From Candidatus Saccharimonadota bacterium (GTDB lineage Bacteria > Patescibacteriota > Saccharimonadia > Saccharimonadales > UBA10212), in the NCBI GenBank assembly GCA_013815775.1, contig JACDFN010000001.1, positions 1 through 45,882 of the forward strand: a stretch of DNA of 45,882 nucleotides, in the 5' to 3' direction. Positions 4,935-20,744 of this stretch are shown piece after piece (within the stretch, counting starts at the first letter, position 1; each line of letters starts with the position of its first letter). The notes beneath the pieces were generated by a model, which saw only the letters and a list, made by a program, of their open reading frames with translations, searched no databases and was not told where the DNA came from. A program made the translations under genes and the position numbers.

Positions 4935-5348
4935 CTATCCGTTGGCTATTTTACTGAGCGTAAACCTCACCAGGACCTGCGCTAAGGCTACTATAATCAA
5001 ACCTATGATGGCATAGAGTATGGTGTTTTTAGCGCTTGTGACACTCGTGTCGTTTCCACCGCTTGTTATGTAGCGCAATCCACCGACTATTATCATAATG
5101 ACGGCAATTACCCCTACAATGGCTGAAAGTAAGTTAATGACAGACCGAATTAAGTCGTTTATTTTTTCAGTGGCATCGCCGCTACTACTACAGTCTCTAG
5201 TTGGATTTTCGCTGAATTCTAGTTCAGCACCGGTGCAAAGTCCGCCAATAATATCGTTCTCTTGGGCATATGCCGGAACAGCCTGAGCAAAATTAAAGCC
5301 TAAGACTATAGCTATTGAGGCCAGGAAACCAGTTATTCTATACATCAC
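4935..5348 (-). CDS. T4SS pilin-like protein (VirB2/TrbC type), paralog 7 of array
   Basis: Signal peptide ending AQA/YAQ, two hydrophobic helices: VIAVIMIIVGGLRYITSGGNDTSVTSAKNTILYAIIGLIIVALAQVLVRF. Confidence 0.85.
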   Translation of the reverse strand: MMYRITGFLASIAIVLGFNFAQAVPAYAQENDIIGGLCTGAELEFSENPTRDCSSSGDATEKINDLIRSVINLLSAIVGVIAVIMIIVGGLRYITSGGNDTSVTSAKNTILYAIIGLIIVALAQVLVRFTLSKIANG

Positions 5349-5387
5349 TTTTATTTTACCAGGTTTTACTTCTATAATTGCGCTAAG

Positions 5388-5816
5388 TTAGGATGCTATC
5401 GATGTGGTGTTGCTTAGAACAAACCGTACTATTACCTGGGACAACGCAACAATGATTAGGCCGATTAAGGCATAAAGTATGGTGTTTTTAGCGTTCCCAA
5501 CTTTAGTGCTATCACCGCCACTTGTTATGTAACGCAAACCACCAAATATAATCATAATAACGGCTATGACTCCAATGATGACCGACAATATATTAACTAT
5601 GCGGCGCAGTAAATCGCTGAAGTTGCCCGTTGAGGTATTAGGATCTTCGCAGGTTGCTTCGCCTTCTGCGATAACTAACTCCTGAGCACCTTTACACAGA
5701 CCTCCCTGTATCGGCCCTGTGCCTTGTGCATGCGCGACTACTGGCACCAGAGTAGGTACAGAAAACATAAGCGCTGAACTCAAGATTAACAGTTTGTTTT
5801 TAATTTTTTGAAACAT
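5388..5816 (-). CDS. T4SS pilin-like protein, paralog 6
   Basis: Signal peptide; IIGVIAVIMIIFGGLRYITSGGDSTKVGNAKNTILYALIGLIIVALSQVIVRFVLS. Confidence 0.85.
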   Translation of the reverse strand: MFQKIKNKLLILSSALMFSVPTLVPVVAHAQGTGPIQGGLCKGAQELVIAEGEATCEDPNTSTGNFSDLLRRIVNILSVIIGVIAVIMIIFGGLRYITSGGDSTKVGNAKNTILYALIGLIIVALSQVIVRFVLSNTTSIAS

Positions 5817-5904
5817 TTTAATTCCTTTGGTTATTTATCTTACAGTATATACGCTCTTATACCACAGTCAACACGCTTATGGCAACGAATGGCAGTCATC
5901 TACA

Positions 5905-6393
5905 TCAATCTGGCTGAGTACCGGGTTTAATCCCTCCACTCGAAGGGGGCGGTGTGGTGTTGGGCTGGCTAGAACTCTTCGATTTAGGGGGAGGGGTTGT
6001 ATCCGTTGCGGTACTTAGCACAAATCTAACTATTACCTGAGCTAGCGCTACTACGACCAGCCCTATAGCCGCATACAATATAGTATTTTTTGCGTTGGCT
6101 ACTTTGGTTGTATCTCCGGCGCTGGTTATGTACCGCAGCCCACCAAACATAATCATAACTACCGCCACTACTCCAATAATTACCGAGAAGACGTTTAAGC
6201 CGCTTTCTATGGTACTGTCCAACTTTTTGGGGTCGTTGCTGCCACTTTCTCCGGCACCAGCATTTGCACCGCACTTAATCTGTTCGGCCGTAGTGGTGCC
6301 CGGGCACTGTGCGTAAACGGAACCTAATAAAAAACTGAACGTAAAAATAATAGTAGCTATAAAAACCAATACTTTATTTAATAGTCGATGCAT
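5905..6393 (-). CDS. T4SS pilin-like protein with Pro/Ser-rich C-terminal tail, paralog 5
   Basis: Signal peptide; VIIGVVAVVMIMFGGLRYITSAGDTTKVANAKNTILYAAIGLVVVALAQVIVRFVLS then TTPPPKSKSSSQPNTTPPPSSGG. Confidence 0.85.
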   Translation of the reverse strand: MHRLLNKVLVFIATIIFTFSFLLGSVYAQCPGTTTAEQIKCGANAGAGESGSNDPKKLDSTIESGLNVFSVIIGVVAVVMIMFGGLRYITSAGDTTKVANAKNTILYAAIGLVVVALAQVIVRFVLSTATDTTPPPKSKSSSQPNTTPPPSSGGIKPGTQPD

Positions 6394-6398
6394 AAGCT

Positions 6399-6821
6399 TT
6401 ATTGAAGCACCCTGTCGGTTATAAATCTAGTCATAGCCCATGCTAGTGCAATAATAACCAGTCCAATAAGCGAATAAACAATGCGCCTTCTGCCTAAAGC
6501 TACTGCTTCGGTGCTTCCGCCTGAAGTTATTAAATTAAAACCACCCAGTAATATTATGAAAATTGCAAATACGGCAGCTACTGAGGCAATGATGGTGGCA
6601 ACATCGTTAATTGTTTCTGTTATGGGGTTAGAGGTGCCGCTTTTAGTTTCTTCGTTGTCTTTGCAAACCGAGCTTTCCGCAGACGAGTTAGTCTTAGTAT
6701 CTTTGCAGCTTCCCTTAAAAAAATTGAACTGGGCGCTAACGGTAGGGGCACTTGCAAGCAGTACCGCGCTGTATAAAAACAAGGATAGAATAACTAGGTT
6801 TATTCTATTTCTAAACATCAA
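6399..6821 (-). CDS. T4SS pilin-like protein (divergent), paralog 4
   Basis: Signal peptide; AIFIILLGGFNLITSGGSTEAVALGRRRIVYSLIGLVIIALAWAMTRF; start overlaps upstream stop by 4 nt. Confidence 0.8.
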   Translation of the reverse strand: MMFRNRINLVILSLFLYSAVLLASAPTVSAQFNFFKGSCKDTKTNSSAESSVCKDNEETKSGTSNPITETINDVATIIASVAAVFAIFIILLGGFNLITSGGSTEAVALGRRRIVYSLIGLVIIALAWAMTRFITDRVLQ

Positions 6822-7105
6822 TTTCCAACCCTTGTAATCACAAAATTAACAATAGCAACGGCCAGGGCTGCGATTACTAATCCGACGGCTATATGTAAAA
6901 GCCTCATCTTTGACTGGGCAATTTTAGCTGGATCACCTTGGGCAGTTATATAACGAAGACCGGCAACTACAAAAAGCAATACCGCCAGCGCCCCTAAAAT
7001 TACATAGACGAGTGCAAAAATCTTATCTATCGTCTTGCCGTCTGCTTTTGTACCCGGCAGATTGCTGTTATCTAAAAGACCGGCTAGATAATACAGTCGC
7101 TTCAT
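6818..7105 (-). CDS. T4SS pilin-like protein (short), paralog 3
   Basis: VILGALAVLLFVVAGLRYITAQGDPAKIAQSKMRLLHIAVGLVIAALAVAIVNFVI. Confidence 0.8.
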   Translation of the reverse strand: MKRLYYLAGLLDNSNLPGTKADGKTIDKIFALVYVILGALAVLLFVVAGLRYITAQGDPAKIAQSKMRLLHIAVGLVIAALAVAIVNFVITRVGN

Positions 7106-7108
7106 TTC

Positions 7109-7507
7109 TTAACCAATTGCCCTTCCAATGAACGATACAACTACAGTGGCCATCATCACAATGACCAGACCGAATATTGCGTTCAAAATTCTCTTTCTGG
7201 CAGAAGCAGCTTTCTCTGGATTTCCATCAGATGTCATGTAGGCGACGCCGGCTATAATTATGTATATTACCGCCAATATACCAGCGGCGTAGAGCATCAT
7301 GTCTATGATGGCGAAAGCTATAGCCCAAACATCATCAGGAAATTTTACTTTGGGGGTACAATTTCCAAGGCCATCGCGTTCGCCGTCCTTAATGTATTTC
7401 CACCAACGCGGCAAGCCAAAAAACGGATTTTTAGACTGATCGAGGTCACAAGCATCACCGATATCAACATTATTTATATTCGGGAGCTGCGCTAAAAACC
7501 ATTGCAT
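7109..7507 (-). CDS. T4SS pilin-like protein, paralog 2
   Basis: AAGILAVIYIIIAGVAYMTSDGNPEKAASARKRILNAIFGLVIVMMATVVVSFIG. Confidence 0.8.
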   Translation of the reverse strand: MQWFLAQLPNINNVDIGDACDLDQSKNPFFGLPRWWKYIKDGERDGLGNCTPKVKFPDDVWAIAFAIIDMMLYAAGILAVIYIIIAGVAYMTSDGNPEKAASARKRILNAIFGLVIVMMATVVVSFIGRAIG

Positions 7508-7509
7508 CG

Positions 7510-7974
7510 CTAATCAAACACTCCCCCCGGTATTAGCCATTGCAAAAATGCCGATACGAATATAAATGCTAGCAGGGCAATCAGAGCGTTAGTTATGTGG
7601 TTTTTGGCTTCGGTGACAGCGTTTGGGTTATCGCCCGCCATAATGTAACGAATCCCTCCAAATATTATCATCGCCACTACTACCACGCCAACCCCTATGC
7701 TCAAGAAGTTAACTAGCAGCTGTAATTTTTTTACCACAGCATTCTCCTTTAAACATTCCTGGAGTTTCTTAGTGGTATTAGCATCATCGCACTTCGGGTC
7801 ACCAATGCTAGTGGACTTCTCGGTTTTAGCTGGGGGAGGAGTGGTGCCACCACTTCCGCCTCCACCAGGGTCAGGAATAGCAAGTGCAACCGCTGGGGAT
7901 ATAAATAACGCTAAAGCAAAACATGCAGTCGCTGCCATCACGATTCGTCTAAAATGAGTTTTTATCTTTTTCAT
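7510..7974 (-). CDS. T4SS pilin-like protein, paralog 1 (first in operon)
   Basis: ORF track start at 8097 shortened to MKKIKTHFRR.. because the candidate promoter lies inside the longer ORF; VVVAMIIFGGIRYIMAGDNPNAVTEAKNHITNALIALLAFIFVSAFL. Confidence 0.8.
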   Translation of the reverse strand: MKKIKTHFRRIVMAATACFALALFISPAVALAIPDPGGGGSGGTTPPPAKTEKSTSIGDPKCDDANTTKKLQECLKENAVVKKLQLLVNFLSIGVGVVVVAMIIFGGIRYIMAGDNPNAVTEAKNHITNALIALLAFIFVSAFLQWLIPGGVFD

Positions 7975-7999
7975 ACGCAGTGGAGAAATTCTTAAGTGA

Positions 8000-8028
8000 A
8001 CTATACCATAATCGAGTTTGACTGACAG
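8000..8028 (-). promoter_or_regulatory. Candidate sigma70-like promoter for the pilin operon
   Basis: On the minus strand: CTGTCA (8028-8023), 17-nt spacer, TATAGT (8005-8000), about 26 nt before the ATG at 7974. Confidence 0.6.
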
Positions 8029-8047
8029 CTCTTGGGGACAGTACAGA

Positions 8048-8076
8048 TTGTGCCGTATAAACGCTTGTGGTATAGT
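8048..8076 (+). promoter_or_regulatory. Candidate sigma70-like promoter for the VirB6-VirB4 operon
   Basis: TTGTGC (8048-8053), 17-nt spacer, TATAGT (8071-8076), 24 nt before the ATG at 8101. Confidence 0.6.
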
Positions 8077-8100
8077 TTCATCAGATACAGAACCCATAAA

Positions 8101-10893
8101 ATGAAAACGAACAAAAAAATATTCTTTGGGCTATCCTTCTTTATTGCGTTAGGGTTTTTTGTATTAGGCGGACAAAAGGTGCAAGCTGCTCCAGTCAACG
8201 ACGATAGTTTTAGAGATACCTTGTATGTGATTACCGCTCTTGAGAATGATCAACCCAAAACTATTACCGTAAAGATAGCTGGCAAAGATTTTACTTTTAC
8301 CGATAAAAATACAACCGATAAAGACAATAACCTAAAAACCACCACTAATGATAGCTTTATCTGCGAGCAAAAAAACCCAACAACCGGTATTACCATAACC
8401 GGGAAACCGCAGCCAATACCGGGTGGTGGCAGCTCTTACGCCGGGTTTATTACTGTCAATTATATGAATAATACAGACGAAAAGTGTACTAATAACGCTG
8501 ACGAAATTGTTGTTAAGCTACCAATTAACCCCGTCTATAACGCGCCTGGGACAGGGGGCGGAGCTGGAACCGTGGGTAATGACGAAGCGCCCGATGTTTG
8601 TTACATTGATTCCGGTGGTTTTCCGCTAGCATGGGTTTTTTGCCCGCTTTTAAGCGCCGGTAATGCTTTAGCTAACGAAATGCTCAATCTTTTTCAGGAC
8701 CAGCTCTCATTTACTGTGAATCAAGACCTTGGCAACCAGGATAGCCAAAACAGAGTAAAGCTCGCCTGGTCACTTGTAAAAAACATATCAAGTGCCGGTC
8801 TCGTCATCATCATGTTAATTATGGTCTTTTCCCAGGCTGTTGGCAGCGGCTTGTTCGATGCCTACACTATTAAAAAAATTCTGCCGCGACTGGCAATAGC
8901 GGCCATTGTCATGCAGTTGTCTTGGGCGCTTTTTGGCTTTGTAGTAAACCTGGTTAACGACATAGGAAACGGCCTAGCGGCCTTTATGTTCGCCCCGTTT
9001 GGGGGCAGCGATAACCTAGAACTTGGCGCCCTTCTGGCCAACGCAGGTATAAGCGTTGTAGAAGCCGCAGCCATAAACTGGGTGGCCCTTATAGCCGTAG
9101 TTGGCTTGGCTGCCGCCGCACTCCCGACGACACTATTCCTAGTTTTTGCAGCCATAGTAGCCCTCTTCACTGCTTTAGTGACCTTAGTTCTTCGAAAAAT
9201 AATAATAATAATGTGTCTTATATTGGCACCACTGGCGCTTTTGGCCTGGATTCTACCCGGAACTCAGCGCTACTGGAAGCTATGGGCGGATAATTTTACG
9301 AAGGTGCTGGTTATGTTCCCGATAATAATTGCCATTGTGGCGTCTGGTAGAATCTTTGCCTACGTGGTGGGTACACAGGATAATAATAAATTTCTAAGCC
9401 TTATCCTAGTGCTGGTTGGCTTTTTTGGGCCTTTATTTTTACTGCCAAAAGCCTTTAAATGGGGTGGCTCGGCAATGGCCTATGCAGGCAATGCAGCCTC
9501 GAGCTTTGGAGGAAATGTAAAAAAAGTGAGCGAAAAGCCAATAAAAGAATACGGGCAGCTACGACAAGGTAGCATTGCCAAACAATATAATCCCGATGCC
9601 AGTAGAGGCAGACGGGCGCTTAGCCGTATCGGTTCTGGACACTTCCTTCCCACCGAACGTTCCCGTCGGCTAACCATTCGCGCCGGTGACCAGTGGGCCG
9701 CAGACCGTAATGAAGAAGCCACCGCTTATGCCGGCAGAGTATCAGAAATAGCAATGAGTAAAGGCTACACGGCATATGAGCTAGATAAAAACGGCAACCG
9801 GATCAAGGATGCCAACGGCAAAGATGTAATAGCTAAAGATAAAAATGGTAATGAAAGAGTTTGGACTCCTGGGGTAGGCGCAGCTAAGCAAGCTCTTATA
9901 GACCTGGCCGGTACCGACCAAACTTCTGACCATGCGAAGCGAGCCGGGCAGGCCGCAGCCAAACAATTGATTGATACTAGTTCATGGATTGAGCTGCAAG
10001 GCAGTACAATTACGAGAGGCGCTAACGCCGGGAAAAGGATATTTGACGCAGGAGCCAACGAAATCTGGGAGAAAACACTTACCACCAGCCCTGAACACTA
10101 CTCTAAAACTCTTAGGAGCAGACCGGATCTTGTGCCACATATGCTCCAATACACTTACGGTGATAATAAGGTTAAGGACCTCTACCCAGAAGAGTTTGCT
10201 GGCATTGATTCCAGCAACCACGATGCAGTGGCGGCCAAAGCAGCCCAGGTCCGTCAACGTAGAGGCTTAAACAAGAATCAAAGGCTCTCAGATGCAGACA
10301 GAATGATAATGTCCATAAAAGACCAGATGAATCCCGAAGATCTTTCCAGCGTGGCTCAAGGCTTCTATCAGGAGATTGCTCGGCTGGGAGATGCCCAAAG
10401 AGGTGGCAACCCTGTTGACGGCCAACGGGTCTCTAACGCTCTGCACGGAGTACTCAAGGGTCTGGCCGATACGGGGCTTCCCGGGCAGCAGGTAATCGCC
10501 AGGTTATCGGGTGGTAGCTTAGGAGAAGACGTTAATAAAGCGCTGGCGAATGGTACAGCCAGTAATAACATTGATGATTATCTTCATCATTCTCAAGCTT
10601 CTGGTAGGGGACGCCCCGCACCTCCACCTGCCAACCAGCAAACAGCTGGAACTCAAGCAGCAGCAACTCCAGGCTCATCTCAAGGCGGTCCGATAGGTGG
10701 TGACCCCAGTGTATTAAAAATTGACCACGATGCTCTCGCTGGAGCCGTAGCCAGTGCTTTCAAGGAAGTTTTGCGTACCAGCCCCCAAACCGTTTTTCAT
10801 CCTACCGAAGGTACGTCTACTTATTCTCCGCCTTCGGCTCCAGCCGAAAAACCTCCTGAGCCAGAACCGCCTCAGCAACCCCCTAGCGCATAA
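8101..10893 (+). CDS. VirB6/TrbL-like polytopic membrane protein with long hydrophilic C-terminus
   Basis: Signal-like N-terminus, multiple TM helices (residues ~240-480), then ~450 aa soluble region and Pro-rich tail; immediately upstream of PrgI/VirB4 genes. Start trimmed from 8032 to the ATG after the promoter. Confidence 0.8.
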   Translation: MKTNKKIFFGLSFFIALGFFVLGGQKVQAAPVNDDSFRDTLYVITALENDQPKTITVKIAGKDFTFTDKNTTDKDNNLKTTTNDSFICEQKNPTTGITITGKPQPIPGGGSSYAGFITVNYMNNTDEKCTNNADEIVVKLPINPVYNAPGTGGGAGTVGNDEAPDVCYIDSGGFPLAWVFCPLLSAGNALANEMLNLFQDQLSFTVNQDLGNQDSQNRVKLAWSLVKNISSAGLVIIMLIMVFSQAVGSGLFDAYTIKKILPRLAIAAIVMQLSWALFGFVVNLVNDIGNGLAAFMFAPFGGSDNLELGALLANAGISVVEAAAINWVALIAVVGLAAAALPTTLFLVFAAIVALFTALVTLVLRKIIIIMCLILAPLALLAWILPGTQRYWKLWADNFTKVLVMFPIIIAIVASGRIFAYVVGTQDNNKFLSLILVLVGFFGPLFLLPKAFKWGGSAMAYAGNAASSFGGNVKKVSEKPIKEYGQLRQGSIAKQYNPDASRGRRALSRIGSGHFLPTERSRRLTIRAGDQWAADRNEEATAYAGRVSEIAMSKGYTAYELDKNGNRIKDANGKDVIAKDKNGNERVWTPGVGAAKQALIDLAGTDQTSDHAKRAGQAAAKQLIDTSSWIELQGSTITRGANAGKRIFDAGANEIWEKTLTTSPEHYSKTLRSRPDLVPHMLQYTYGDNKVKDLYPEEFAGIDSSNHDAVAAKAAQVRQRRGLNKNQRLSDADRMIMSIKDQMNPEDLSSVAQGFYQEIARLGDAQRGGNPVDGQRVSNALHGVLKGLADTGLPGQQVIARLSGGSLGEDVNKALANGTASNNIDDYLHHSQASGRGRPAPPPANQQTAGTQAAATPGSSQGGPIGGDPSVLKIDHDALAGAVASAFKEVLRTSPQTVFHPTEGTSTYSPPSAPAEKPPEPEPPQQPPSA

Positions 10894-10932
10894 GAGTTGC
10901 CAATGACGCTTATGTATCAGATACTGTAAGCT

Positions 10933-11925
10933 ATGGCTATTTATAAGGTAATTCAGGATATTGAGGCCGAGGACAAGCTTGTTGGACCGCTAAGCCTGAA
11001 GGGTTTTATTTACGCAATTATTGCAATGACCCTGGCCTATCTTAATTTCCGTATATTGCTTAGTACCGGTTTTAACCCTTTGGGTATTCTAATCGTATTA
11101 ATATTATCCTTTCCAATGTTTCTTTTTGGGGTTTTAGCCTCGCCACTAGGGCGCGACCAGCCCACGGAAGTGTGGCTGTTGAGCCATGTACGTTACTTTT
11201 TGAAGCCCCGTAAACGAACCTGGGACCAAGCCGGAGTAATTGAACTGGTAACAATCACCGCTCCAAAGAAAGTGCAAAGGCAGCTGACTAAAAATTTTAG
11301 CCCCAACGAAGTAAATAGTCGCCTCCAAGCTCTTGCCATGACGCTGGATAGCCGGGGTTGGGCCGTAAAAAACGTGAATATAAACCTTAATCCTACCCAG
11401 GGATATAGCGCTCAAATAATTCAACCAGGTTCCGACAGACTAGTAACCGCCAGCAATATGCCTCAAGACGTTTCATCTTTGGATATTCAAGCATCTGAGG
11501 ATATTCTTGACGAACAAAATAACCCAACCGCTCAAAATTTTGCAAGGCTTATGCAGCAAGCCGAAACAAACAGAAGGATTCAAACTGTTAGCAGGGTTAA
11601 TGACGCTAGAGGGGGAGTGGTCCAACAACCGGTGGATTTTAGCTTTCTGGATGAACAACAAGTAGCCACAGAAAGTTCTGGGCATACCAGGTTTGTTACT
11701 CACACGATAGTTGGGCCTGAACCCAAGCAAGTGAGCCGTATCATTCCTGTTCCCCCGCCAAACGCCATTCCTAAGGTGACAGGCTTAGCGCAAGCTGATA
11801 AAATTGAACTCATAAAGGCCGCTAAAAACGATAAGGTTTCCACGCTCGCTAAACTGGCCAATCGTCGGGCCCGGGTTGTTCAAAACGGACCCAACGAAGT
11901 GGAAATTACCCTTCATTCAGAATGA
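10933..11925 (+). CDS. PrgI family (VirB3-like) T4SS inner-membrane protein
   Basis: N-terminus MAIYKVIQDIEAEDKLVGPLSLKGFIYAIIAMTLAYLNFRIL...LGRDQPTEVWLLSHVRYFLKPRKRTW typical of PrgI proteins preceding VirB4. Confidence 0.85.
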   Translation: MAIYKVIQDIEAEDKLVGPLSLKGFIYAIIAMTLAYLNFRILLSTGFNPLGILIVLILSFPMFLFGVLASPLGRDQPTEVWLLSHVRYFLKPRKRTWDQAGVIELVTITAPKKVQRQLTKNFSPNEVNSRLQALAMTLDSRGWAVKNVNINLNPTQGYSAQIIQPGSDRLVTASNMPQDVSSLDIQASEDILDEQNNPTAQNFARLMQQAETNRRIQTVSRVNDARGGVVQQPVDFSFLDEQQVATESSGHTRFVTHTIVGPEPKQVSRIIPVPPPNAIPKVTGLAQADKIELIKAAKNDKVSTLAKLANRRARVVQNGPNEVEITLHSE

Positions 11926-11959
11926 ACTTAAGTTAAACCAAAACGGGTGGAAGAAAAGC

Positions 11960-12781
11960 ATGAATCCTAGCCAACAGATAAATCCCAGTCAGATGCCAAA
12001 TAGTCAGGCTTTTCCTGTTGCCGTCCAGACAGGCAAGACTTCTCAGCCAACTAACCCAAATAGTACTCAAAATAGCCTCCAGATTAGCGAAATACGCGAC
12101 GGCATTGGCATTATGAGCGACGGGTCTTTTAGGGCTGCGCTGATGTGTAAGTCTATAAATTTTGACCTGATGAGCGACCAGGAGCGGGAAGCGGTGGAAT
12201 TTAGCTACCAAGGGTTTTTAAATTCGCTTTATTTTCCAATTCAGATTTTCATTCGTAGTCAGAAAGTAGACCTCCGCCCCTACCTAGAAAAGCTTGATAA
12301 AACCAGGACCGAGCAAGCTAACATGCTACTGGCCATGATGATGGATGACTATATTGGCTTCTTATCTGATGTTGCCCAGCAGACAAATATAATGGATAAA
12401 AGGTCTTATGTAATAATCAGCTACCCAGACCCTGATGAAAATTTTAGAAGTGCGATTAAACAAAGTACAGGATTTTTTAATGGCATGCTTGAGTTGTTCC
12501 GGGGTAACAAGCCTCCCCATGTAGTCATCAATGAAAGTGTTTTAGAAAATGCTAAAACCGAGTTAAAGAATCGTGTTCAAGCTGTTATGCAGGGTCTGCA
12601 GCAATGCGGCGTTCAAAGTTTGCCTTTAGATACACAGGAATTAATTGAACTATTCTACGGTGCCTATAATCCAGATACGGCTACCAGACAACAGCTTAAA
12701 AATTTTAACGACTTAAATGCCCCCATTGTCACTAAGGCTGCAGCTCCAGCGCCCGGCGCTACCACGGGGGCAATAAGATGA
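11960..12781 (+). CDS. VirB4/TraC N-terminal-domain-like protein
   Basis: ISEIRDGIGIMSDGSFRAALMCKSINFDLMSDQEREAVEFSYQGFLNSLYFPIQIFIRSQKVD; 4-nt ATGA overlap with the VirB4 gene. Start trimmed from 11876. Confidence 0.75.
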   Translation: MNPSQQINPSQMPNSQAFPVAVQTGKTSQPTNPNSTQNSLQISEIRDGIGIMSDGSFRAALMCKSINFDLMSDQEREAVEFSYQGFLNSLYFPIQIFIRSQKVDLRPYLEKLDKTRTEQANMLLAMMMDDYIGFLSDVAQQTNIMDKRSYVIISYPDPDENFRSAIKQSTGFFNGMLELFRGNKPPHVVINESVLENAKTELKNRVQAVMQGLQQCGVQSLPLDTQELIELFYGAYNPDTATRQQLKNFNDLNAPIVTKAAAPAPGATTGAIR

Positions 12782-14703
12782 AACTTCCTTTCAACAAGAA
12801 GCCGCCCGTGCCTGAAGATGCCGGGTTCAATAATCAGATGCTTGAGCAGCAAGAGGTGAATACGGCATTTCAGAAGGGCGTAACGGCTCTGCGGGATTTT
12901 ATCGCTCCTAGTTCTCTTGAATTTAATAGCAATTATTTTCAACTGGGTACACGCTATGCGCGCTCATATTACGTTTATGGCTACCCCCACCAGGTATACA
13001 CCGGTTGGTTATCCGGCATGATTAACCTGGATGAAATAGTAGACCTATCGATGATAGTTCAGCCCGTAAAATCCGAGGTGGTACTTAATAACCTTCGCAA
13101 AAAGGTTAGCCAGCTTGAAGCAGGCATCCAGATAGACTCCGAGAAAGGTCGAGTTCGTGACCCCGCTAAACAGGCAGCCATCCTAGATGCCGAGGAGATG
13201 CGCGATAAACTTCAGGTGGGAGAAGAGCGCTTTTTCCGCTTTGGGCTTTATTTCACTCTATACGCCAACTCCATGGAGGAGTTAGAAATTGTAAGCCACA
13301 AAGTGGAGTCCTTGCTTGGACAGCAACTAATATATTCCAAGCCTGCTAGCGCCCAACAAGAACAAGCCTTTAACAGCACTCTCCCGCAGTTTACAGATCA
13401 ACTCCAAATATACCGTAACCTCGACACCGGAGCTATAAGCACCAGTTTTCCATTTACTTCTGCTGACTTAACCCAGGATAACGGCATTCTCTACGGAATA
13501 AACATGCATAACTCTGGGTTAGTTATTTTTGACCGTTTCTCTCTAGAAAATGGAAACAGCGTAGTCTTCGCTAAGTCCGGAGCCGGTAAGAGCTTTACGG
13601 TAAAGCTTGAAGCTCTACGGAGTATGATGTTTGGTACCGATATTTTTATTATCGACCCAGAAAACGAATACCAAAAAATGTGCGACGCCGTAGGTGGGGC
13701 ATATGTTCGCTTGAGCTTAAACAGTACAACGCGTATAAACCCCTTCGACTTACCGCAGGTCATAGATACCGATGAAGCCGATAACGCCCTTAGAAGCAAC
13801 CTGATAACATTGCATGGATTACTTAGGCTTATGATGGGCGGCGCACAGGCCCAAATGCTAGGTAACGGCACGACTGCCACCATGCCGGCCCTAAGCCCAT
13901 CAGAAGAGGCTGATCTTGACGCCGCTTTAATAGAAACCTACGCTAAGGCGGGTATCACTCCAGACCCTCTTACCCACGGTTCGCTACCGCCAACGGTTAA
14001 CGATCTTTACGACACCCTGCTTCATATGGGCGGCACTGGCCCGCAGCTAGCCCAAAGGTTGCGCAAATATACGACTGGTACATTTGCCGGCATTTTCAGT
14101 CAACAGAGCAATGTTAACGTCAATAACCCTATGGTAGTTTTCAACATTCGCGATCTGGAAGACGAACTAAGGCCGGTAGCTATGTATATAGTCCTTAACT
14201 ATATTTGGAACAAAACAAAAGCTGACAAGAAACGACGACTATTAATCGTTGATGAGGCCTGGCAGTTGATGCGCTATGAAGACAGTGCAAACTTCCTTTT
14301 CTCTTTGGCCAAGCGTGCTCGAAAATATAACCTCGGTATAACTACCATTTCGCAAGATGTTGAAGATTTTATGGCATCAAGGATGGGTCGAGCAATAGTG
14401 GCTAACGCCAGCATGCAAATGCTTCTCAAACAATCGCCTTCGGCGGTAGATGTACTGGCTGATGTATTTAAGCTAACCAGCGAAGAAAAGAAAAGACTTA
14501 GCCAATTCCCGGTTGGTCAAGGCTTGTTCTTCGCCGGCCAAAGCCACGTACACATCCAAGTAATCGCCAGTCCGACTGAATCTGGCTTAATAAGCACTAC
14601 CCCGAGCCCTACTCGACGACCAGCCGTGAATACAAACCCCCAAAACGAACCTACTTATTCCGATAATCTACCGCCAGAGTCTCAGCAGGCCACCGGAGCA
14701 TAA
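12778..14703 (+). CDS. virB4: VirB4-like T4SS ATPase
   Basis: Walker A AKSGAGKSFTVKLEALR, IIDPENEYQKMCDAVGG, Walker B LLIVDEAWQLMRYEDSANFLFSLAKRARKYNLGITTISQDVEDF. Confidence 0.95.
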   Translation: MKLPFNKKPPVPEDAGFNNQMLEQQEVNTAFQKGVTALRDFIAPSSLEFNSNYFQLGTRYARSYYVYGYPHQVYTGWLSGMINLDEIVDLSMIVQPVKSEVVLNNLRKKVSQLEAGIQIDSEKGRVRDPAKQAAILDAEEMRDKLQVGEERFFRFGLYFTLYANSMEELEIVSHKVESLLGQQLIYSKPASAQQEQAFNSTLPQFTDQLQIYRNLDTGAISTSFPFTSADLTQDNGILYGINMHNSGLVIFDRFSLENGNSVVFAKSGAGKSFTVKLEALRSMMFGTDIFIIDPENEYQKMCDAVGGAYVRLSLNSTTRINPFDLPQVIDTDEADNALRSNLITLHGLLRLMMGGAQAQMLGNGTTATMPALSPSEEADLDAALIETYAKAGITPDPLTHGSLPPTVNDLYDTLLHMGGTGPQLAQRLRKYTTGTFAGIFSQQSNVNVNNPMVVFNIRDLEDELRPVAMYIVLNYIWNKTKADKKRRLLIVDEAWQLMRYEDSANFLFSLAKRARKYNLGITTISQDVEDFMASRMGRAIVANASMQMLLKQSPSAVDVLADVFKLTSEEKKRLSQFPVGQGLFFAGQSHVHIQVIASPTESGLISTTPSPTRRPAVNTNPQNEPTYSDNLPPESQQATGA

Positions 14704-14709
14704 AACTAG

Positions 14710-17700
14710 ATGGCAGAACCAGCACGCCAACTAAACGAACGGGAGGGTAATACTCACGATAACCATAAGCCGGGACAAGTTTTTGAGCCAAGAATAGTTG
14801 AGGGTAACGGTGGAGGCGACTCCATACCACGAGGAAAATTAGTTGCGGCAAAAGAACCCACATATGATCAGCCTGGCAATGAATCATCCACTCCTGACAA
14901 GCCTAATTTAAAAGCTCTAGAGGGTGGCGGAGAACCTTCAAGGCCAAAGGACAATCTACGCAGTAATGCTGAGGATGAAAATTCAACATCAGAAAATTTA
15001 CTAAAGGCAGAGAGTAGTGCAGAAGTAAGCCCTCAACGACACGAAAACCCGGTAGGTGATGGCTATAAATCTGCTGGCAAGCAAAAAGGACTGATGTCGC
15101 GTTTTACTAGTCGCCGGGCCTTAATTGGTATAGGTGCCTTAGGAAGTGCCACGATAGTAGGCGCTGTTCTGCTATTTAGTTTTTTGAATATTTTTAAACT
15201 CGATGGCTTAATGAGCAATGTTACAGCTAAGGCCTTCCTGCGGAGCAGCGCCGTTTTAGACGGAAGGTCTAGCAAATGGGTTTCGGCCTACATTCAGGCC
15301 AGGATGCTTGATATGGGCGACAGCGCTGACATGAACAATAATGAAAATATACTGTTTCGGAGCAATAAGGTTGACACAAACAGCCCTTTCACAGACTGGT
15401 ACAAAACCCTTCGAGCATCGAAATTTGAATTGGAGGTCTTTGAAAAACAAGGTATCAAGTTTACTTCAGCAGTAACGGCTGATGGCAAGATTAGGCCTGG
15501 CCGCATAGACATAAAGGGTCAAGACTCCATACCTATCAAAGTAAGTGCTAGTGATTTTAGCAAAATTAGCAGCGGAGACATCGAAACAATAAACAAATAC
15601 CAAACCTACGTTGATACAGAAGTGTTCAAAAATGATAAAGCTGCCCGTAAAGCTATCAAGCAGGTGGTTAAAGAGAATACTCTCTGGCACCAAATTTATC
15701 AGCGGCGCCACCTGCGTAAATCTATCCAAAACATGACAGGAGTAAGAGATTGGCGATTTTTTGAGCAGACTAGAGATAAAGCAAACGAAAGTGGTGCTGC
15801 TGTACGAGCTAAAGTGGTCGATAAAATGGTACCTGACGCTACACTGCTGGGCAGGGTTACCCGTTGTTTGTTTGGAGTCGAGCAGTGCAATCCCAGCCGC
15901 GACGTTGCTGATCCCAAAAACCGAGCGACCGTTCAAGCCAAATACGGTACCGATAAGGCAAAAACTAAAGAGGAAATTAAAAAAGAACAGGAATTTTTAG
16001 CTCAGCTGAAAGACAAAGGTATTGACCCAAGTGATTTATCGGAAGCATTAAAGAAAATTTTAACCAGGGCTAATCTTATTACTAACTTGCTTTTCTTGCC
16101 AGATACCCTAGATATGATCGCCTTTATTGATGACAATCTAGAAAAACTTGTTAAGTTAGTTGTGCTGGCAAGAGGGGCGCAAGCCGCTGGTTTGTATCAA
16201 GAATTCTCAACAGCTAACGACCAGCTAAAAACCGGTCAAGTCACAGGGGAAGAAGTGAATCACTTTATGCAAATACTCAGCTCGGCCGGCAGTAGCGACG
16301 GATGGGCAAAGGTTGTAGAGGGTAAGGGAGACCCCGGCACCGCCTCTTCGACTGGCAAGTGTAGCAGAGAAGAATTAGCCAAGGCTGAAAAACAACCCAA
16401 TAAATATCAGAAAGAGTACGCTCTCCTATGTGCCGATGAGCGTATAGGTAGTACCGCTAAAGCACAACAAATTCAAGATGAATATAAAGCTACGGTTGGC
16501 ATCATTGTTGGGCCAATCGCAGATGCCTGGACGGGAGCTAAAGGCAATATTATAACAGGAACGTTCATTCGGGCAATTCAGTGGTTCAGCGGATTAATTG
16601 CTAGTGCACTTAGCGGTGTTTTTGGAGCAATCCTGGATATTTTAGGTCTTAAAGATAATGTCGAGAAAGCAATATTCTGGGTATTCGGTAAGCTTTCGGC
16701 TTTTATAGGCATCAACATAATCTCCGGTAACGAATCCGGAGGGAAATTTTATAACTGGCTAGTGCAGGGTGGTGCATATACCGCCGAGTCAGACGCTCGC
16801 CAAAAGGGCGCAAGCCTGACTAACGGCGCCAGCCTCGCCTCAACTCAGCTAGCTATTAAGCAACACCAGACCGACAGGCAGGAAGATATGAGTTTATTTG
16901 ACCGAGTAGCTTCGCTAGATAATCCAGACTCATTGGCATACAAAAGCTTAATTGCCGCTGATAGCTTACGATCAAACCCAAGCGCCGCCATGGCTTCGAG
17001 CTTAAAAAATATGTGGCGGGGACTTGGTAGCAGTTTTTCTACGATTCTTGTAGGGCAGTCGAGTGCGGCAACATTAGATGGTTATGCGGCCAGCAAGTTC
17101 GCCGGTATAGAGACCTATGATTATCCGCCTAAGTGTTCGACATTGAACCCAATACTATCTAAGCCCATAGATGGGACTAACGCATTGGACGTTTTTGCCA
17201 ACCCCTCAAAATATAATCTTAAAAACGCGCCTATTGGGTTATCGCAAGATGAAATTAATTCACTCAATGACTGGGACGTAATGACAAACAGCGATGAGTT
17301 CTATAATACAATCTACGGGATAATCGGCGAGAATACCGAAGATGCCGATGACATTGCTGTTCAGATCTATAACTGCCACCTGCTAGACACAGCTATTCGC
17401 GGCAGTTTAGGTTACCTATACGGCTACAGTAAGGACAATGGTCTAGAAGATAACGTTGCTAGCAGCCCGCCACCTGGCACCACTCCGCCGCCTCCAGGCG
17501 ACCCGACTTCTCCAGTTACCGGCACCGCGCAACAAATTGCCAAGCAGATATTGGCAGCAGCTGCGGCTGGGAAAATAAAGTTTAATGTACTATTTGGCTC
17601 AGATATATTTGACGGCTCAACTCCCGAGCAAAACGTTGAACAAACGGCGGCTGGCCTGCCAGCTAAGACCACCTCTACCTGCGGAAGCAGTGGTCGCGGG

Positions 17701-17970
17701 GCGCAGGCTCCTAGTCCAGTAGTTGCCATGGATCTAAACCTATTAAAGTTTATTCTGGAGGTCAGCCAAGGCCAAAATATTCAAATTAATGCTTTGGCTG
17801 GGCAATGCCATAGTTCGGGGTCTAGGCATTACGAGGGTAAAGCAGTTGATTTCGGATGCCCTTTCAACGCTTCTGCCGCTGACGCCGTAGCAGGAAAATA
17901 TGGGGTTTCTAGAAATTCTGAAAATTGCGCTCAAAACGCCCACTACCATTATTCTGTGGGGGGAAGCTAA
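14710..17970 (+). CDS. Large T4SS-associated protein with disordered N-terminus, TM segments and a C-terminal M15-like peptidase motif
   Basis: 1086 aa; TM ALIGIGALGSATIVGAVLLFSFLNIF; C-terminal SRHYEGKAVDFGC (SxHxxGxAxD) and HYHYSV. Confidence 0.75.
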   Translation: MAEPARQLNEREGNTHDNHKPGQVFEPRIVEGNGGGDSIPRGKLVAAKEPTYDQPGNESSTPDKPNLKALEGGGEPSRPKDNLRSNAEDENSTSENLLKAESSAEVSPQRHENPVGDGYKSAGKQKGLMSRFTSRRALIGIGALGSATIVGAVLLFSFLNIFKLDGLMSNVTAKAFLRSSAVLDGRSSKWVSAYIQARMLDMGDSADMNNNENILFRSNKVDTNSPFTDWYKTLRASKFELEVFEKQGIKFTSAVTADGKIRPGRIDIKGQDSIPIKVSASDFSKISSGDIETINKYQTYVDTEVFKNDKAARKAIKQVVKENTLWHQIYQRRHLRKSIQNMTGVRDWRFFEQTRDKANESGAAVRAKVVDKMVPDATLLGRVTRCLFGVEQCNPSRDVADPKNRATVQAKYGTDKAKTKEEIKKEQEFLAQLKDKGIDPSDLSEALKKILTRANLITNLLFLPDTLDMIAFIDDNLEKLVKLVVLARGAQAAGLYQEFSTANDQLKTGQVTGEEVNHFMQILSSAGSSDGWAKVVEGKGDPGTASSTGKCSREELAKAEKQPNKYQKEYALLCADERIGSTAKAQQIQDEYKATVGIIVGPIADAWTGAKGNIITGTFIRAIQWFSGLIASALSGVFGAILDILGLKDNVEKAIFWVFGKLSAFIGINIISGNESGGKFYNWLVQGGAYTAESDARQKGASLTNGASLASTQLAIKQHQTDRQEDMSLFDRVASLDNPDSLAYKSLIAADSLRSNPSAAMASSLKNMWRGLGSSFSTILVGQSSAATLDGYAASKFAGIETYDYPPKCSTLNPILSKPIDGTNALDVFANPSKYNLKNAPIGLSQDEINSLNDWDVMTNSDEFYNTIYGIIGENTEDADDIAVQIYNCHLLDTAIRGSLGYLYGYSKDNGLEDNVASSPPPGTTPPPPGDPTSPVTGTAQQIAKQILAAAAAGKIKFNVLFGSDIFDGSTPEQNVEQTAAGLPAKTTSTCGSSGRGAQAPSPVVAMDLNLLKFILEVSQGQNIQINALAGQCHSSGSRHYEGKAVDFGCPFNASAADAVAGKYGVSRNSENCAQNAHYHYSVGGS

Positions 17971-17971
17971 A

Positions 17972-19231
17972 ATGTTGGCAGAAAAAATTATATCCGCTAG
18001 TAAGTTTCTGATACTAATCCTATTTATCTGCACTATAATTTATCCGAACATTGCTGCTGCTCAGGGCAGTACTTATAGAAAATTACAAACTCCTTTCTAT
18101 GACCCAAACGGCTCCCAGACCACTTCCTGCGGAAGTGCTAGTTTAATTGGATCAGAAAATGCCGAGAAGGTTTTTAACTTTTTTAGGGGCAAGGGAATGG
18201 AAGCATGGCAAGCCGCCGGAATCATCGGTAATATGACCGCAGAATCTGGTGTTGAACCCCAGCGTCTTCAGGGAACTCCAATAGATGTAAAAACACCGGC
18301 TGAGTCTTTTTCCGGTAGCCTTGGCTGGGGCATCGTGCAGTGGACACCTGGCAGCAAATTTATCGATACCATCAACCCTATAAGCAAGGCTAACGAACTT
18401 GGGGTGCAGCTAGAGTTTTTATGGAAACAGCTAGAGGGCAAAGGGCCGCTACCCGAGAAACAAGCAGGTGATGAACTTAAAAGAACTACCGATGTAGAGA
18501 GCGCTACCGTTGCCTTCCAAGGAACAGAGCCCGGCGGAACCGTGCAGTACGAGGGTAAAAGCTATGGTCCCTATACTGGTTTTGAGAGACCGGCGGATAA
18601 GCAAGGAAGTATTGCTTTTCGGATTGACACCGCAAAAAGCATATTTGCTAAGTACGGGTCAAATGATGGAGGCGGTGCAGCGGAGTGCGTGTTAGGTGGC
18701 AGCTTAGGTATTTCAGGAGACTGCCAGGCAAACGGCATAGTCTATGAGGGTCAATATACCCAGCAGCAGTTAAGAAAAATTTTTGGCCCGCCGGTCCGTG
18801 ACACTAAGGTAAATCTGGTTAACATCGACTTCTTCGGCAGTAAAATACCAGTACATAAACTAGTTGCTCCCTGCCTCAAAGCCATAGAGCAAGAGCTAAT
18901 AGCTAAAAATGTAAGCTACAGACCCGAAGCCTTAAAGGGTGGTTTCTGGTGTATAAGAGAAAATGACGGCCAAATAGGCGACAGCAGCTACCATGTATAC
19001 GGAGCCGGGTGTGACATCAACCCCCTTACCAATAATTACTTCAGTGATGGCAAGGCAAGACCCTACACCCCCAACTGTCCAATTGCAACGGGGGTGATAG
19101 ACAGTGGCAATTGTTATGATTTACCCCCGGATTATGTGTCGACCTTTGAGAAATATGGGTTTGCGTGGGGTGGTAACTATAGCTCTATAAAAGATTACAT
19201 GCATTTTGAGTGGCATGGGGTAAAACCATGA
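17972..19231 (+). CDS. Bifunctional peptidoglycan hydrolase: phage-tail-lysozyme-like domain plus VanY/M15-type carboxypeptidase domain
   Basis: Signal peptide; EKVFNFFRGKGMEAWQAAGIIGNMTAESGVEPQRLQ..LGWGIVQWTPGSKF; C-terminal SYHVYGAGCDINP and MHFEWHG. Start trimmed from 17900. Confidence 0.85.
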   Translation: MLAEKIISASKFLILILFICTIIYPNIAAAQGSTYRKLQTPFYDPNGSQTTSCGSASLIGSENAEKVFNFFRGKGMEAWQAAGIIGNMTAESGVEPQRLQGTPIDVKTPAESFSGSLGWGIVQWTPGSKFIDTINPISKANELGVQLEFLWKQLEGKGPLPEKQAGDELKRTTDVESATVAFQGTEPGGTVQYEGKSYGPYTGFERPADKQGSIAFRIDTAKSIFAKYGSNDGGGAAECVLGGSLGISGDCQANGIVYEGQYTQQQLRKIFGPPVRDTKVNLVNIDFFGSKIPVHKLVAPCLKAIEQELIAKNVSYRPEALKGGFWCIRENDGQIGDSSYHVYGAGCDINPLTNNYFSDGKARPYTPNCPIATGVIDSGNCYDLPPDYVSTFEKYGFAWGGNYSSIKDYMHFEWHGVKP

Positions 19232-19274
19232 TTGATCCAAGAATAAAGTGTAATAAAGCTGGGAGTTTACGCTC

Positions 19275-20744
19275 ATGAAGAAAAAAGCCATTTTAGTACT
19301 CTCGGCTATTGTTTTCGTACTGGTTATCTACGGCCTATATAGCACCGCTTTTATTGAAGTATCCGTTACCGGCCAAGGTAGCTCCGAAATTTCCTATAAA
19401 TTTATAAACCAAGATACTTCTAAGGAGAAGGTGATTAAGAGCGGCTCTACTAAACTAAAAACCAGAGTGTCTAAGGGAAATTACGAGATTTTGGTCAAGC
19501 AGGGTGAAGTCAGTTATGTATCGATAATAAAAGCTGCAGGATTTCTAAAAACTTCCTCGATTAGCGCTAGCCTTAAGCCGGAAAAGAGCCGGCAATTCGT
19601 GGGCAATAACCCCGGTTCATGCATGAACTACAACGACAGTATACTTGTTACGCATACCTGTGGAACTACCTACAACAAGGTCAACGTCCACGTCCCGGCA
19701 AACTCTTCTTTACCAACCTATATTGCCCAAAGCTCAAGCCTATCCATATTCGGCTATTTGGGAGGTGTAGTGAACACTAGCGAAGGCAGTCTGGCTTTGG
19801 TCCGCGCTCTAGGAGATGACGTTAGCAGCTACTTTATCCACCGTATCGACCAAAGCCTTAAATCACTTGGTTCAACTGCACTGCCAAACCTTGACGTAAA
19901 CAAATTCTACGTCATTAAATCCTATGGGAGTGGATTCATAATTTATGATACTTCTTTCCAACAGGTACTTATTTATCCTAGCAGAGCTGCAAAACCGATG
20001 ACGGTTAAGTTTGATACCCCGGGTGAAAAGAATTTAATTCTCAAAGATATAGACTTTCGAAGCAATGGGTTTACTAAGCTATACACTACAGATGACGGCT
20101 CTAAGGATGCCCGGTCGGAAGTGGTGGCTGTCCGAGAAGGGAAATCCAAGCACTATGTTTTTAATAAAAAATTTCTACAGGCTAAACTATGTGGGGAGCG
20201 GTCTTTGTGCGTAGTCACAGGCGAGCGGCTCGAGGTCTATGATATAGCGCAAGAAAAACCGAAGTTTTCTTTTGCCCTTAATGGGACGGAGCTGGTGGGA
20301 ACTTCCGGCAAGAACATCCTAATCAAACATGGCCGAGGGATAATAAACTTGGACCTGGACAAACGCAGCGGGTTTATTGAATTTGGCCTTGATGATTATG
20401 ATTACTGCGGAATACAAGAAGATGCTGGAACGTATTTGCTCTGTTTAATTAACAATAAGAATAAAAAGGTTGCTCTGCGCATAGACACGGGCTCCGACAA
20501 CACTGACAGTGTAGATAAAAAAATAAACCAGCTCCTCAATACGCCGGAGGTTTCTGATGTATCTATCTACGGTAAGTTTATCTTTATATCTCCTAACCTG
20601 GGGGAGCTTGTGTACGACAGTAGAACTAACGGCTACGGATACAACCCTGCCACCAAAAAAGCTGCTAATGACAAAATAAACCAGGAGATAGATCGGTTAG
20701 GAATAGACAGGAGAGTATATTCTATTACCAACACGATTCCCTGA
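19275..20744 (+). CDS. Hypothetical membrane-anchored protein, PEGA-like N-terminal segment and beta-rich (propeller-like) ectodomain
   Basis: 489-aa ORF, single N-terminal TM then extracellular repeats; no family recognised with confidence. Confidence 0.65.
   Translation: MKKKAILVLSAIVFVLVIYGLYSTAFIEVSVTGQGSSEISYKFINQDTSKEKVIKSGSTKLKTRVSKGNYEILVKQGEVSYVSIIKAAGFLKTSSISASLKPEKSRQFVGNNPGSCMNYNDSILVTHTCGTTYNKVNVHVPANSSLPTYIAQSSSLSIFGYLGGVVNTSEGSLALVRALGDDVSSYFIHRIDQSLKSLGSTALPNLDVNKFYVIKSYGSGFIIYDTSFQQVLIYPSRAAKPMTVKFDTPGEKNLILKDIDFRSNGFTKLYTTDDGSKDARSEVVAVREGKSKHYVFNKKFLQAKLCGERSLCVVTGERLEVYDIAQEKPKFSFALNGTELVGTSGKNILIKHGRGIINLDLDKRSGFIEFGLDDYDYCGIQEDAGTYLLCLINNKNKKVALRIDTGSDNTDSVDKKINQLLNTPEVSDVSIYGKFIFISPNLGELVYDSRTNGYGYNPATKKAANDKINQEIDRLGIDRRVYSITNTIP

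What the first reader, a model, noticed from the sequence alone, without database searches (positions are those of the whole stretch)
4935..20744. Origin-linked type IV secretion-like machine with no relaxase, seven pilin paralogs and built-in cell-wall hydrolases
Two divergent operons encode seven VirB2/TrbC-like small proteins on one side and VirB6-like, PrgI/VirB3-like, VirB4-N-like, VirB4, a 1086-aa M15-tailed protein, a lysozyme+M15 protein and a 489-aa ectodomain protein on the other. The locus ends 8 bp from recF and sits within 20 kb of dnaA. No relaxase, VirD4, VirB11, integrase or direct-repeat boundary is visible, so this looks like a resident chromosomal envelope machine rather than a mobile element. 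In an epibiotic or symbiotic CPR cell it could serve contact with, or penetration of, a host bacterium. T4SS-like genes in Saccharibacteria-type genomes are already known; the complete module composition and its function are the open part.
Basis: partly seen in the sequence, partly recalled or inferred. Interest (0 to 1): 0.8.

Follow-up and report, generated by a model that had tools for sequence, protein, structure and literature searches.

The report
Epibiont secretion machine with shuffled host-facing parts
This is the already-described chromosomal type IV secretion system of Saccharibacteria (tiny bacteria that live on other bacteria); comparing about 100 relatives shows a near-invariant inner engine, while the parts expected to face the host cell, tipped with cell-wall-cutting enzymes, are repeatedly exchanged between lineages, which makes them candidate host-range determinants.

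Summary
The locus (4935-20744) is a resident member of the Patescibacteria T4SS published by Wang 2023 (essential in S. epibionticum, SEML1_0006-0019) and Quinonero-Coronel 2025. Missing relaxase, pilin arrays, proximity to dnaA, and lysozyme plus peptidase genes next to virB4 are therefore known. Gene order from PrgI to recF/dnaN was kept in 95 of 95 loci tested. One correction: two VirD4/TrwB-like ATPases lie elsewhere in this genome. What I did not find in the literature: VirB4 is more conserved than DnaA, yet VirB6 and everything between virB4 and recF are hypervariable. The 1086-aa protein belongs to an unnamed family; after a linker it carries exchangeable C-terminal modules (M23, VanY, LAS-type, M14, GDSL, CHAP, or none). 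The lysozyme protein does too (NlpC, C39, CHAP, M23, M15, amidase). Between sister species with VirB4 98% and RecF/DnaN/DnaA 97-100% identical, these genes fall to 35-40% identity, and their trees reject the species grouping. In the window itself the large protein groups with other families. In one lineage VirB6, the large protein and its companions stand together elsewhere. Best reading: a conserved secretion engine with a recombining host-wall interface. Host matching is inferred, not shown.

The parts
4935..5348 (-). T4SS pilin 1 (VirB2-like), far end of the array
   Evidence: PF18895 E 1.3e-15; belongs to the variable tail of the array
5388..5816 (-). T4SS pilin 2
   Evidence: PF18895 E 3e-15
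5905..6393 (-). T4SS pilin 3
   Evidence: PF18895 E 4e-15
6399..6821 (-). T4SS pilin 4
   Evidence: PF18895 E 6e-13
6818..7105 (-). T4SS pilin 5
   Evidence: PF18895 E 6e-14; reciprocal best hits at position 3 from VirB6 in 13 of 14 cases
7109..7507 (-). T4SS pilin 6, positional ortholog across the order
   Evidence: PF18895 E 2e-12; reciprocal best hits at position 2 from VirB6 in 35 of 37
7510..8097 (-). T4SS pilin 7, VirB6-proximal, positional ortholog across the order
   Evidence: PF18895 E 4e-8; reciprocal best hits at position 1 in 39 of 39
8032..10893 (+). VirB6-like polytopic membrane protein (likely start ATG 8101); hypervariable
   Evidence: 6 of 21 family members match TrbL/VirB6 PF04610, best 8.7e-6; 6 hydrophobic segments; 40% identity between sister species
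10933..11925 (+). PrgI/VirB3-like inner-membrane protein
   Evidence: PF12666 E 1e-8
11876..12781 (+). TrsD-like protein (VirB4 N-terminal half encoded separately); likely start 11960
   Evidence: NF041427 TrsD E 1.5e-6, below its cut-off; found in 79 of 79 loci
12778..14703 (+). VirB4 ATPase
   Evidence: NF045971 E 2.5e-106; solved VirB4 4ag5 E 1e-47; mean column identity 78% across 13 diverse members
14710..17445 (+). Core of the 1086-aa 'PL' protein: cytoplasmic tail, TM about residue 138-156, helical ectodomain, two hydrophobic segments at 629-672
   Evidence: one homologous family in 79 of 80 loci by iterated HMM; no Pfam family in the window protein, no PDB match; hydrophobic segments
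17446..17970 (+). Exchangeable C-terminal LAS-type zinc-peptidase-like module of PL (HYEGKAVDF at residue 1040, HYH at 1078)
   Evidence: motifs and grouping with LAS-type tails; no Pfam hit
17900..19231 (+). 'LZ' protein: hydrophobic N-terminus, phage-tail-type lysozyme, exchangeable C-terminal M15_4 peptidase (likely start 17972)
   Evidence: PF18013 3.5e-25, PF13539 2.3e-15
19275..20744 (+). 489-aa single-TM ectodomain protein: PEGA/Ig-like domain plus beta-propeller
   Evidence: AlphaFold model pLDDT 81, Foldseek propeller matches; PEGA PF08308 in a positional relative
20752..21828 (-). recF, right boundary of the exchangeable block
   Evidence: DNA homology between species resumes at its 3' end

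Best explanation
A resident, vertically inherited Patescibacteria-type T4SS. Its inner engine is PrgI/VirB3, TrsD plus VirB4, and a pilin array with two or three fixed VirB6-proximal pilins and a variable tail; a TraD/VirD4-like ATPase encoded elsewhere may couple to it. This engine drives an outward-facing module made of VirB6, a membrane-anchored helical arm (PL) ending in a wall-hydrolase tip, a lysozyme plus peptidase protein, and a PEGA/propeller ectodomain protein. I propose that the arm and hydrolases locally open the peptidoglycan between epibiont and host so that the pilus/translocon can reach the host membrane and move substrate. Because this interface must fit each host's wall and surface, the module's genes and their C-terminal enzyme modules are exchanged between lineages by recombination in conserved flanking genes, while the engine stays fixed. 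Shown: composition, synteny, hypervariability, domain exchange, phylogenetic conflict, one case of the module standing elsewhere as a unit. Inferred: surface orientation, host wall as target, host matching as the selective reason, recombination route, direction and nature of substrate.
For: Family matches. Order kept in 95 of 95. Conservation falls steeply: similarity to the window in bits/aa is VirB4 1.49, DnaA 1.15, TrsD 0.85, PrgI 0.43, LZ 0.15, VirB6 0.13, PL 0.06. PL is one family in 79 of 80 loci. C-terminal modules: PL M23 20, VanY 13, LAS 13, no enzyme detected 28, plus GDSL, M74, M14 and CHAP; LZ NlpC 28, C39 11, CHAP 9, M23 5, LAS 5, M15_4 3, plus others (Pfam on representatives). 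On the VirB4 tree the LZ module changes 35 times against 37.6 for shuffled labels, i.e. almost no inheritance signal; PL 35 against 47.9. Sister species L109/L140: VirB4 98, RecF 97, DnaN 99, DnaA 100% but VirB6 40, PL 35, LZ 36; L103/L148 at similar flank DNA divergence keeps PL 95 and LZ 96%. AU tests reject L109+L140 for PL (2e-6) and LZ (1e-6), whereas DnaN unites them. For the window, VirB4 and RecF place it in its family (support 99 and 100) but PL goes with L083/L063 and LZ with L111/L113, family clade rejected (without the C-terminal modules p 4e-6 and 0.0025). In the L067 lineage VirB6 and the PL block are both absent from the locus and stand together on another contig. Essentiality in S. 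epibionticum: PMC10633639.
Against: No host is known for this genome and no hydrolase class was linked to any host. Surface orientation rests on hydropathy and family knowledge. The hydrolases could remodel the epibiont's own wall during assembly, as VirB1 does. 28 of 80 PL proteins have no detected enzyme module, so a hydrolase tip on PL is not obligatory. The PL model is poor (pLDDT 53). Homology edges at gene ends alone would also arise from very fast evolution. Most genomes are MAGs. The sister pair tested was picked after seeing its pattern, and trees used the quick search.
Confidence: 0.6

Rival explanations
1. Ordinary member of the known T4SS whose outer genes merely evolve very fast under relaxed or diversifying selection, without exchange between lineages.
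For: PL and VirB6 are divergent in nearly all pairs, and edges of DNA homology coincide with gene ends for all pair distances.
Against: Non-homologous enzyme modules replace each other; trees of PL and LZ conflict with flanking genes and reject the species groups; LZ of L109 is 60% identical to L141 but 36% to its sister L140; one sister pair keeps PL at 95% at comparable flank divergence.
Confidence: 0.15
2. The hydrolases act on the epibiont's own wall (VirB1-like assembly factors) and the module variation tracks its own wall chemistry or phage pressure, not the host.
For: VirB1/PrgK-type hydrolases normally aid assembly of the channel in the producing cell (PMC12102498); the LZ architecture, a glycosidase plus a peptidase domain, is like Gram-positive VirB1.
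Against: Own wall chemistry would not be expected to change between sister species with 98-100% identical core proteins (inference); the variation extends to VirB6 and the arm, not only to enzymes.
Confidence: 0.25
3. The system is mainly a DNA or nucleotide uptake machine, with VirB4 and the distant TraD-like ATPases moving host DNA inward.
For: T4SS-mediated uptake was proposed as a nucleotide source because competence genes are dispensable (PMC11665869); a TraD-like ATPase exists in this genome and has weak similarity to CedB/CedD DNA importers.
Against: No uptake component was found in the locus; the distant T4CP gene was not essential in ML1 (PMC12102498).
Confidence: 0.2
4. A degenerate or masked conjugative element (ICE) inserted near the origin.
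For: T4SS homology to Gram-positive conjugation systems.
Against: Same position in 95 of 95 loci, no MobA/TrwC relaxase, one distant tyrosine recombinase.
Confidence: 0.02

Closest known systems
Southlakia epibionticum ML1 T4SS (SEML1_0006-0019; Wang et al. 2023, PMC10633639)
   Same: Gram-positive-type conjugative T4SS with a pilin array, no coupling protein or relaxase recognised in the cluster; peptidase and lysozyme genes directly downstream of virB4 (PMC12102498)
   Different: Seven pilins here against six there; the exchange of host-facing modules is not described in the text read
Patescibacteria-clade MPF-FATA T4SS (Quinonero-Coronel et al. 2025, PMC12102498)
   Same: VirB4, TrsD, PrgI, VirB6, pilin arrays of 2-11 genes, location near dnaA/dnaN, relaxase mostly absent, VirD4-like genes far from virB4 (about two per genome, as here)
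   Different: That study does not treat the PL family, the exchangeable hydrolase modules, the phylogenetic conflict or the fixed order of VirB6-proximal pilins in the text read
VirB1/PrgK/TraG-type wall hydrolases of Gram-positive conjugation systems
   Same: Membrane-linked glycosidase joined to a peptidase domain
   Different: Phage-tail-type lysozyme domain, many alternative second domains, and a second separately encoded arm protein (PL) with its own hydrolase module
Amplified VirB2-type pilin genes of Bartonella and Anaplasma T4SS (cited in PMC12102498)
   Same: Tandem paralogous T4SS pilins, varied host contact suggested
   Different: Here the VirB6-proximal pilins are fixed orthologs; the strongest variation is in VirB6, PL and LZ

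Membership tests
Patescibacteria T4SS (MPF-FATA derived) | VirB4 of the FATA type | tested here: met
   NF045971 above cut-off, E 2.5e-106; VirB4 in 122 of 129 good genomes of the order. The published VirB4 tree itself was not rebuilt.
Patescibacteria T4SS (MPF-FATA derived) | TrsD, PrgI/VirB3 and VirB6 next to virB4 | tested here: met
   TrsD and VirB6 identified through weak or family-level matches
Patescibacteria T4SS (MPF-FATA derived) | VirB2-like pilin array | tested here: met
   Seven PF18895 pilins
Patescibacteria T4SS (MPF-FATA derived) | Chromosomal position near dnaA/dnaN/recF conserved | tested here: met
   95 of 95 loci
Patescibacteria T4SS (MPF-FATA derived) | Required for growth on a host | not testable with these tools
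   Published for S. epibionticum only (PMC10633639)
Conjugative element / ICE | Relaxase | tested here: not met
   No PF03432 or PF08751 in the genome; other MOB classes not all tested, PF13814 search uninformative
Conjugative element / ICE | Integrase beside the module | tested here: not met
   Only one tyrosine recombinase, on contig C4
Conjugative element / ICE | Coupling protein (VirD4/TraD) | tested here: inconclusive
   Absent from the locus; PF02534 absent, but TraG-D_C and TrwB_AAD_bind ATPases occur elsewhere
M15 peptidase (tail of the 1086-aa protein) | Match to an M15 profile | tested here: not met
   No Pfam hit for whole protein or tail; LAS-type motif pair only
VirB8 | NTF2-like VirB8 domain in the locus | not tested
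   No Pfam VirB8 match seen; some relatives carry a further small single-TM protein that was not folded

The most novel reading that the evidence does not exclude
Host specificity of Saccharibacteria is set largely by an exchangeable interface module of an otherwise fixed T4SS: VirB6, the PL arm with its hydrolase tip, the lysozyme/peptidase protein and the ectodomain protein are re-assorted among species, partly gene by gene, by recombination (perhaps after natural transformation) between conserved virB4 and recF flanks, each allele fitting a particular host wall.
Probability: 0.4. Interest if true: 0.85.

Novelty: new member of a known kind. Interest (0 to 1): 0.6.

Why it matters
What the essential T4SS of Saccharibacteria does, and what sets their narrow host range, are open questions (PMC11665869). 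[quoted passage not shown] The present comparison points to specific genes (VirB6, PL, LZ, ectodomain protein) as candidates and gives ready tests: allele-host association among existing isolates, and wall-digestion assays with the C-terminal modules. It also defines an unnamed protein family, PL, present in nearly all these loci, that annotation pipelines miss.

Tried and rejected
Structure of PL: model too poor (pLDDT 53), no Foldseek or profile match in the PDB; a likeness to phage tape-measure proteins (hydrophobic segments plus wall enzyme) is only an analogy and was not tested. Profile comparison of the window's PL tail with VanY, M15_4 and M23 groups of relatives gave no significant link, so the M15 label was dropped. 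ICE reading rejected. Using the sharp edges of DNA homology as proof of replacement was rejected because fast evolution in genes between slow ones gives the same edges; the argument rests on tree conflict, module exchange and unequal sister pairs. Literature searches on hypervariability or recombination of this T4SS found nothing.
Full report
WHAT IS THERE. The window begins at the first base of contig C1 of a 747-kb, 4-contig, 99%-complete genome; VirB4 relatives place it in the order of Saccharibacteria. Between hsp20 and recF lie two divergent gene sets. On the minus strand are seven pilins, all above Pfam's cut-off for T4SS_pilin. On the plus strand are VirB6-like, PrgI, TrsD-like, VirB4, a 1086-aa protein (here PL), a lysozyme + M15_4 protein (here LZ) and a 489-aa ectodomain protein. 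The last stop codon is 7 bp from recF.

WHAT IS ALREADY KNOWN. Wang et al. 2023 (PMC10633639) showed by Tn-seq that the homologous cluster SEML1_0006-0019 of Southlakia epibionticum is essential on its host, carries pilins and lacks recognisable relaxase and coupling proteins. Quinonero-Coronel et al. 2025 (PMC12102498) described the system across the phylum: VirB4 clade within MPF-FATA, TrsD, PrgI, VirB6, pilin arrays of 2-11 genes, nearness to dnaA, relaxases rare, VirD4-like genes mostly far from virB4, and peptidase and lysozyme genes directly downstream of virB4 in ML1.

RESIDENCE. VirB4 occurs in 122 of 129 good genomes of the order. In 95 of 95 loci with the needed genes the order PrgI-TrsD-VirB4-PL-(recF/dnaN, opposite strand) is kept, and hsp20 flanks the pilin side in 57 of 57. 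No MobA/MobL- or TrwC-type relaxase and only one distant tyrosine recombinase exist in the genome. The Replic_Relax search was uninformative. A 960-aa TraG/TraD-like ATPase and a 907-aa TrwB-like ATPase lie on other contigs, in line with the two VirD4-like genes per genome implied by the published counts. A coupling ATPase is thus possible.

CONSERVATION FALLS FROM INSIDE TO OUTSIDE. Across 79 other loci, similarity to the window in bits per residue is VirB4 1.49, DnaA 1.15, DnaN 1.02, TrsD 0.85, RecF 0.72, PrgI 0.43, LZ 0.15, VirB6 0.13, PL 0.06. PL is nevertheless one family: an iterated profile started from the window protein recovers 79 of 80 positional counterparts, with no reversed decoys. 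It has an N-terminal TM and in 58 of 80 cases further hydrophobic segments near 60% of its length. Pfam and the PDB hold no relative of its core.

EXCHANGEABLE ENZYME MODULES. After a linker rich in P and G, PL ends in M23 (20), VanY (13), LAS-type (13), GDSL, M74-like, M14 or CHAP modules, or has no enzyme detected (19 short ends plus 9 with a shared non-enzyme tail). LZ ends in NlpC/P60-like (28), C39 (11), CHAP (9), M23 (5), LAS-type (5), M15_4 (3), SLT, amidase_2 and others (Pfam of representatives; remaining members assigned by similarity and motif, so individual labels are approximate). On a VirB4 tree of 79 loci each label changes at least 35 times. For LZ this is hardly fewer than for shuffled labels (37.6, minimum 33); for PL it is fewer (47.9, minimum 41), partly through one clade with the shared tail.

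EXCHANGE, NOT ONLY SPEED. L109 (UBA6040) and L140 share VirB4 98%, RecF 97%, DnaN 99%, DnaA 100%, yet VirB6 40%, PL 35%, LZ 36%. DNA similarity stops about 100 bp into PL and resumes at the recF stop, while the pilin array stays 83% identical and collinear. L103 and L148, with comparable DNA divergence, keep PL 95% and LZ 96%, at 85.7% DNA identity over 12.3 kb. The PL and LZ trees reject L109+L140 as a clade (p 2e-6 and 1e-6; VirB6 0.014) though DnaN unites them, and the nearest relatives of the two genes differ (PL of L109 with L145, LZ with L141), so they also move separately. This pair was chosen after its pattern was seen. Over 64 loci the best partner by VirB6, PL or LZ is the VirB4-best partner in 22-27%, against 44-55% for TrsD, PrgI, DnaN and RecF. 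The window shows it too: VirB4 and RecF place it with its own family (support 99 and 100), PL with L083/L063 and LZ with L111/L113. The family clade is rejected also when the C-terminal modules are removed (p 4e-6 for PL, 0.0025 for LZ).

THE MODULE AS A UNIT. In the lineage of L067/L078 the locus runs PrgI-TrsD-VirB4-recF without the PL-LZ-ectodomain block, and in L078, where the left side is also held, VirB6 is missing too, with the last pilin directly next to PrgI (L073 also lacks the PL block; its left part is cut). In the genome of L067 these genes stand together on another contig: VirB6 971 aa, PL 1010 aa, a lysozyme-position protein of 445 aa that my LZ profile did not recognise, and a 209-aa single-TM protein. 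This supports a physical and functional unit, with the caution that it is a MAG; the other two genomes gave no hit, perhaps through incompleteness.

PILINS. Arrays hold 3-8 genes, mostly 6. The VirB6-proximal pilin 7 finds its reciprocal best hit at position 1 in 39 of 39 cases, pilin 6 at position 2 in 35 of 37, pilin 5 at position 3 in 13 of 14; pilins 1-3 wander. This suggests fixed special subunits plus an expandable set, rather than seven interchangeable variants.

MECHANISM. The most likely working model is a conserved engine that assembles a pilus/translocon through an outward module whose arm and hydrolases open the wall at the contact site. The module is re-assorted between lineages because it must fit the host. 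The first half follows from established roles of VirB3/4/6 and VirB1-like enzymes; the host-matching half is inference. PMC9040727 found host range poorly matched to strain phylogeny and a T4SS-secreted protein among the most variable core genes, which fits but does not prove it.

LIMITS. No host is known for this genome; most genomes are MAGs; trees were quick searches with long branches in PL, LZ and VirB6; the PL fold is unknown; only open-licence papers were searchable.

Noticed in passing
Own genome C1:74805-82471, outside the window (L033 9805-17471): A high-GC (0.55-0.58 against about 0.44) island with a second, actinobacterial-looking T4SS set: ParA-like ATPase, small membrane proteins, SCO6880-family protein (4e-15, just under its cut-off), VirB4-like ATPase, lytic transglycosylase-like protein; no relaxase seen. 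Possibly acquired from an actinobacterial host.
   Followed up: partly
Own genome C4:56514-59396 and C2:61708-64431: Two VirD4/TrwB-like ATPases far from the T4SS locus; candidates for a coupling protein or for unrelated HerA-like roles.
   Followed up: partly
L067, L078 and L173 (G150:C48): A lineage in which VirB6 and the PL block are missing from the T4SS locus and, in G150, found together on another contig.
   Followed up: partly
Order-wide genomes, for example G101:C1:29550, G051:C2:5330, G142:C1:148429: A second VirB4 type, about 38-39% identical, occurs in a number of Saccharibacteria genomes; its neighbourhood was not read.
   Followed up: no
G054:C3:19944-21764 and G096:C4:64002-65771: VirB4 copies with in-frame stop codons: pseudogenes or sequence errors.
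   Followed up: no
L116 17786-20755: A second copy of the PL family downstream of the first set in one genome.
   Followed up: no
PL family alignment A2: Two PL proteins have a weak match to the Exo_endo_phos family and single ones to M14 or GDSL enzymes, so not all modules need act on peptidoglycan.
   Followed up: no
Several relatives, for example L043:1519-2115, L046:15762-16388, L098:17398-18024: An additional small single-TM protein without Pfam family sits between the PEGA protein and recF; its C-terminal sequence made me suspect an NTF2/VirB8-like fold, which was not tested.
   Followed up: no
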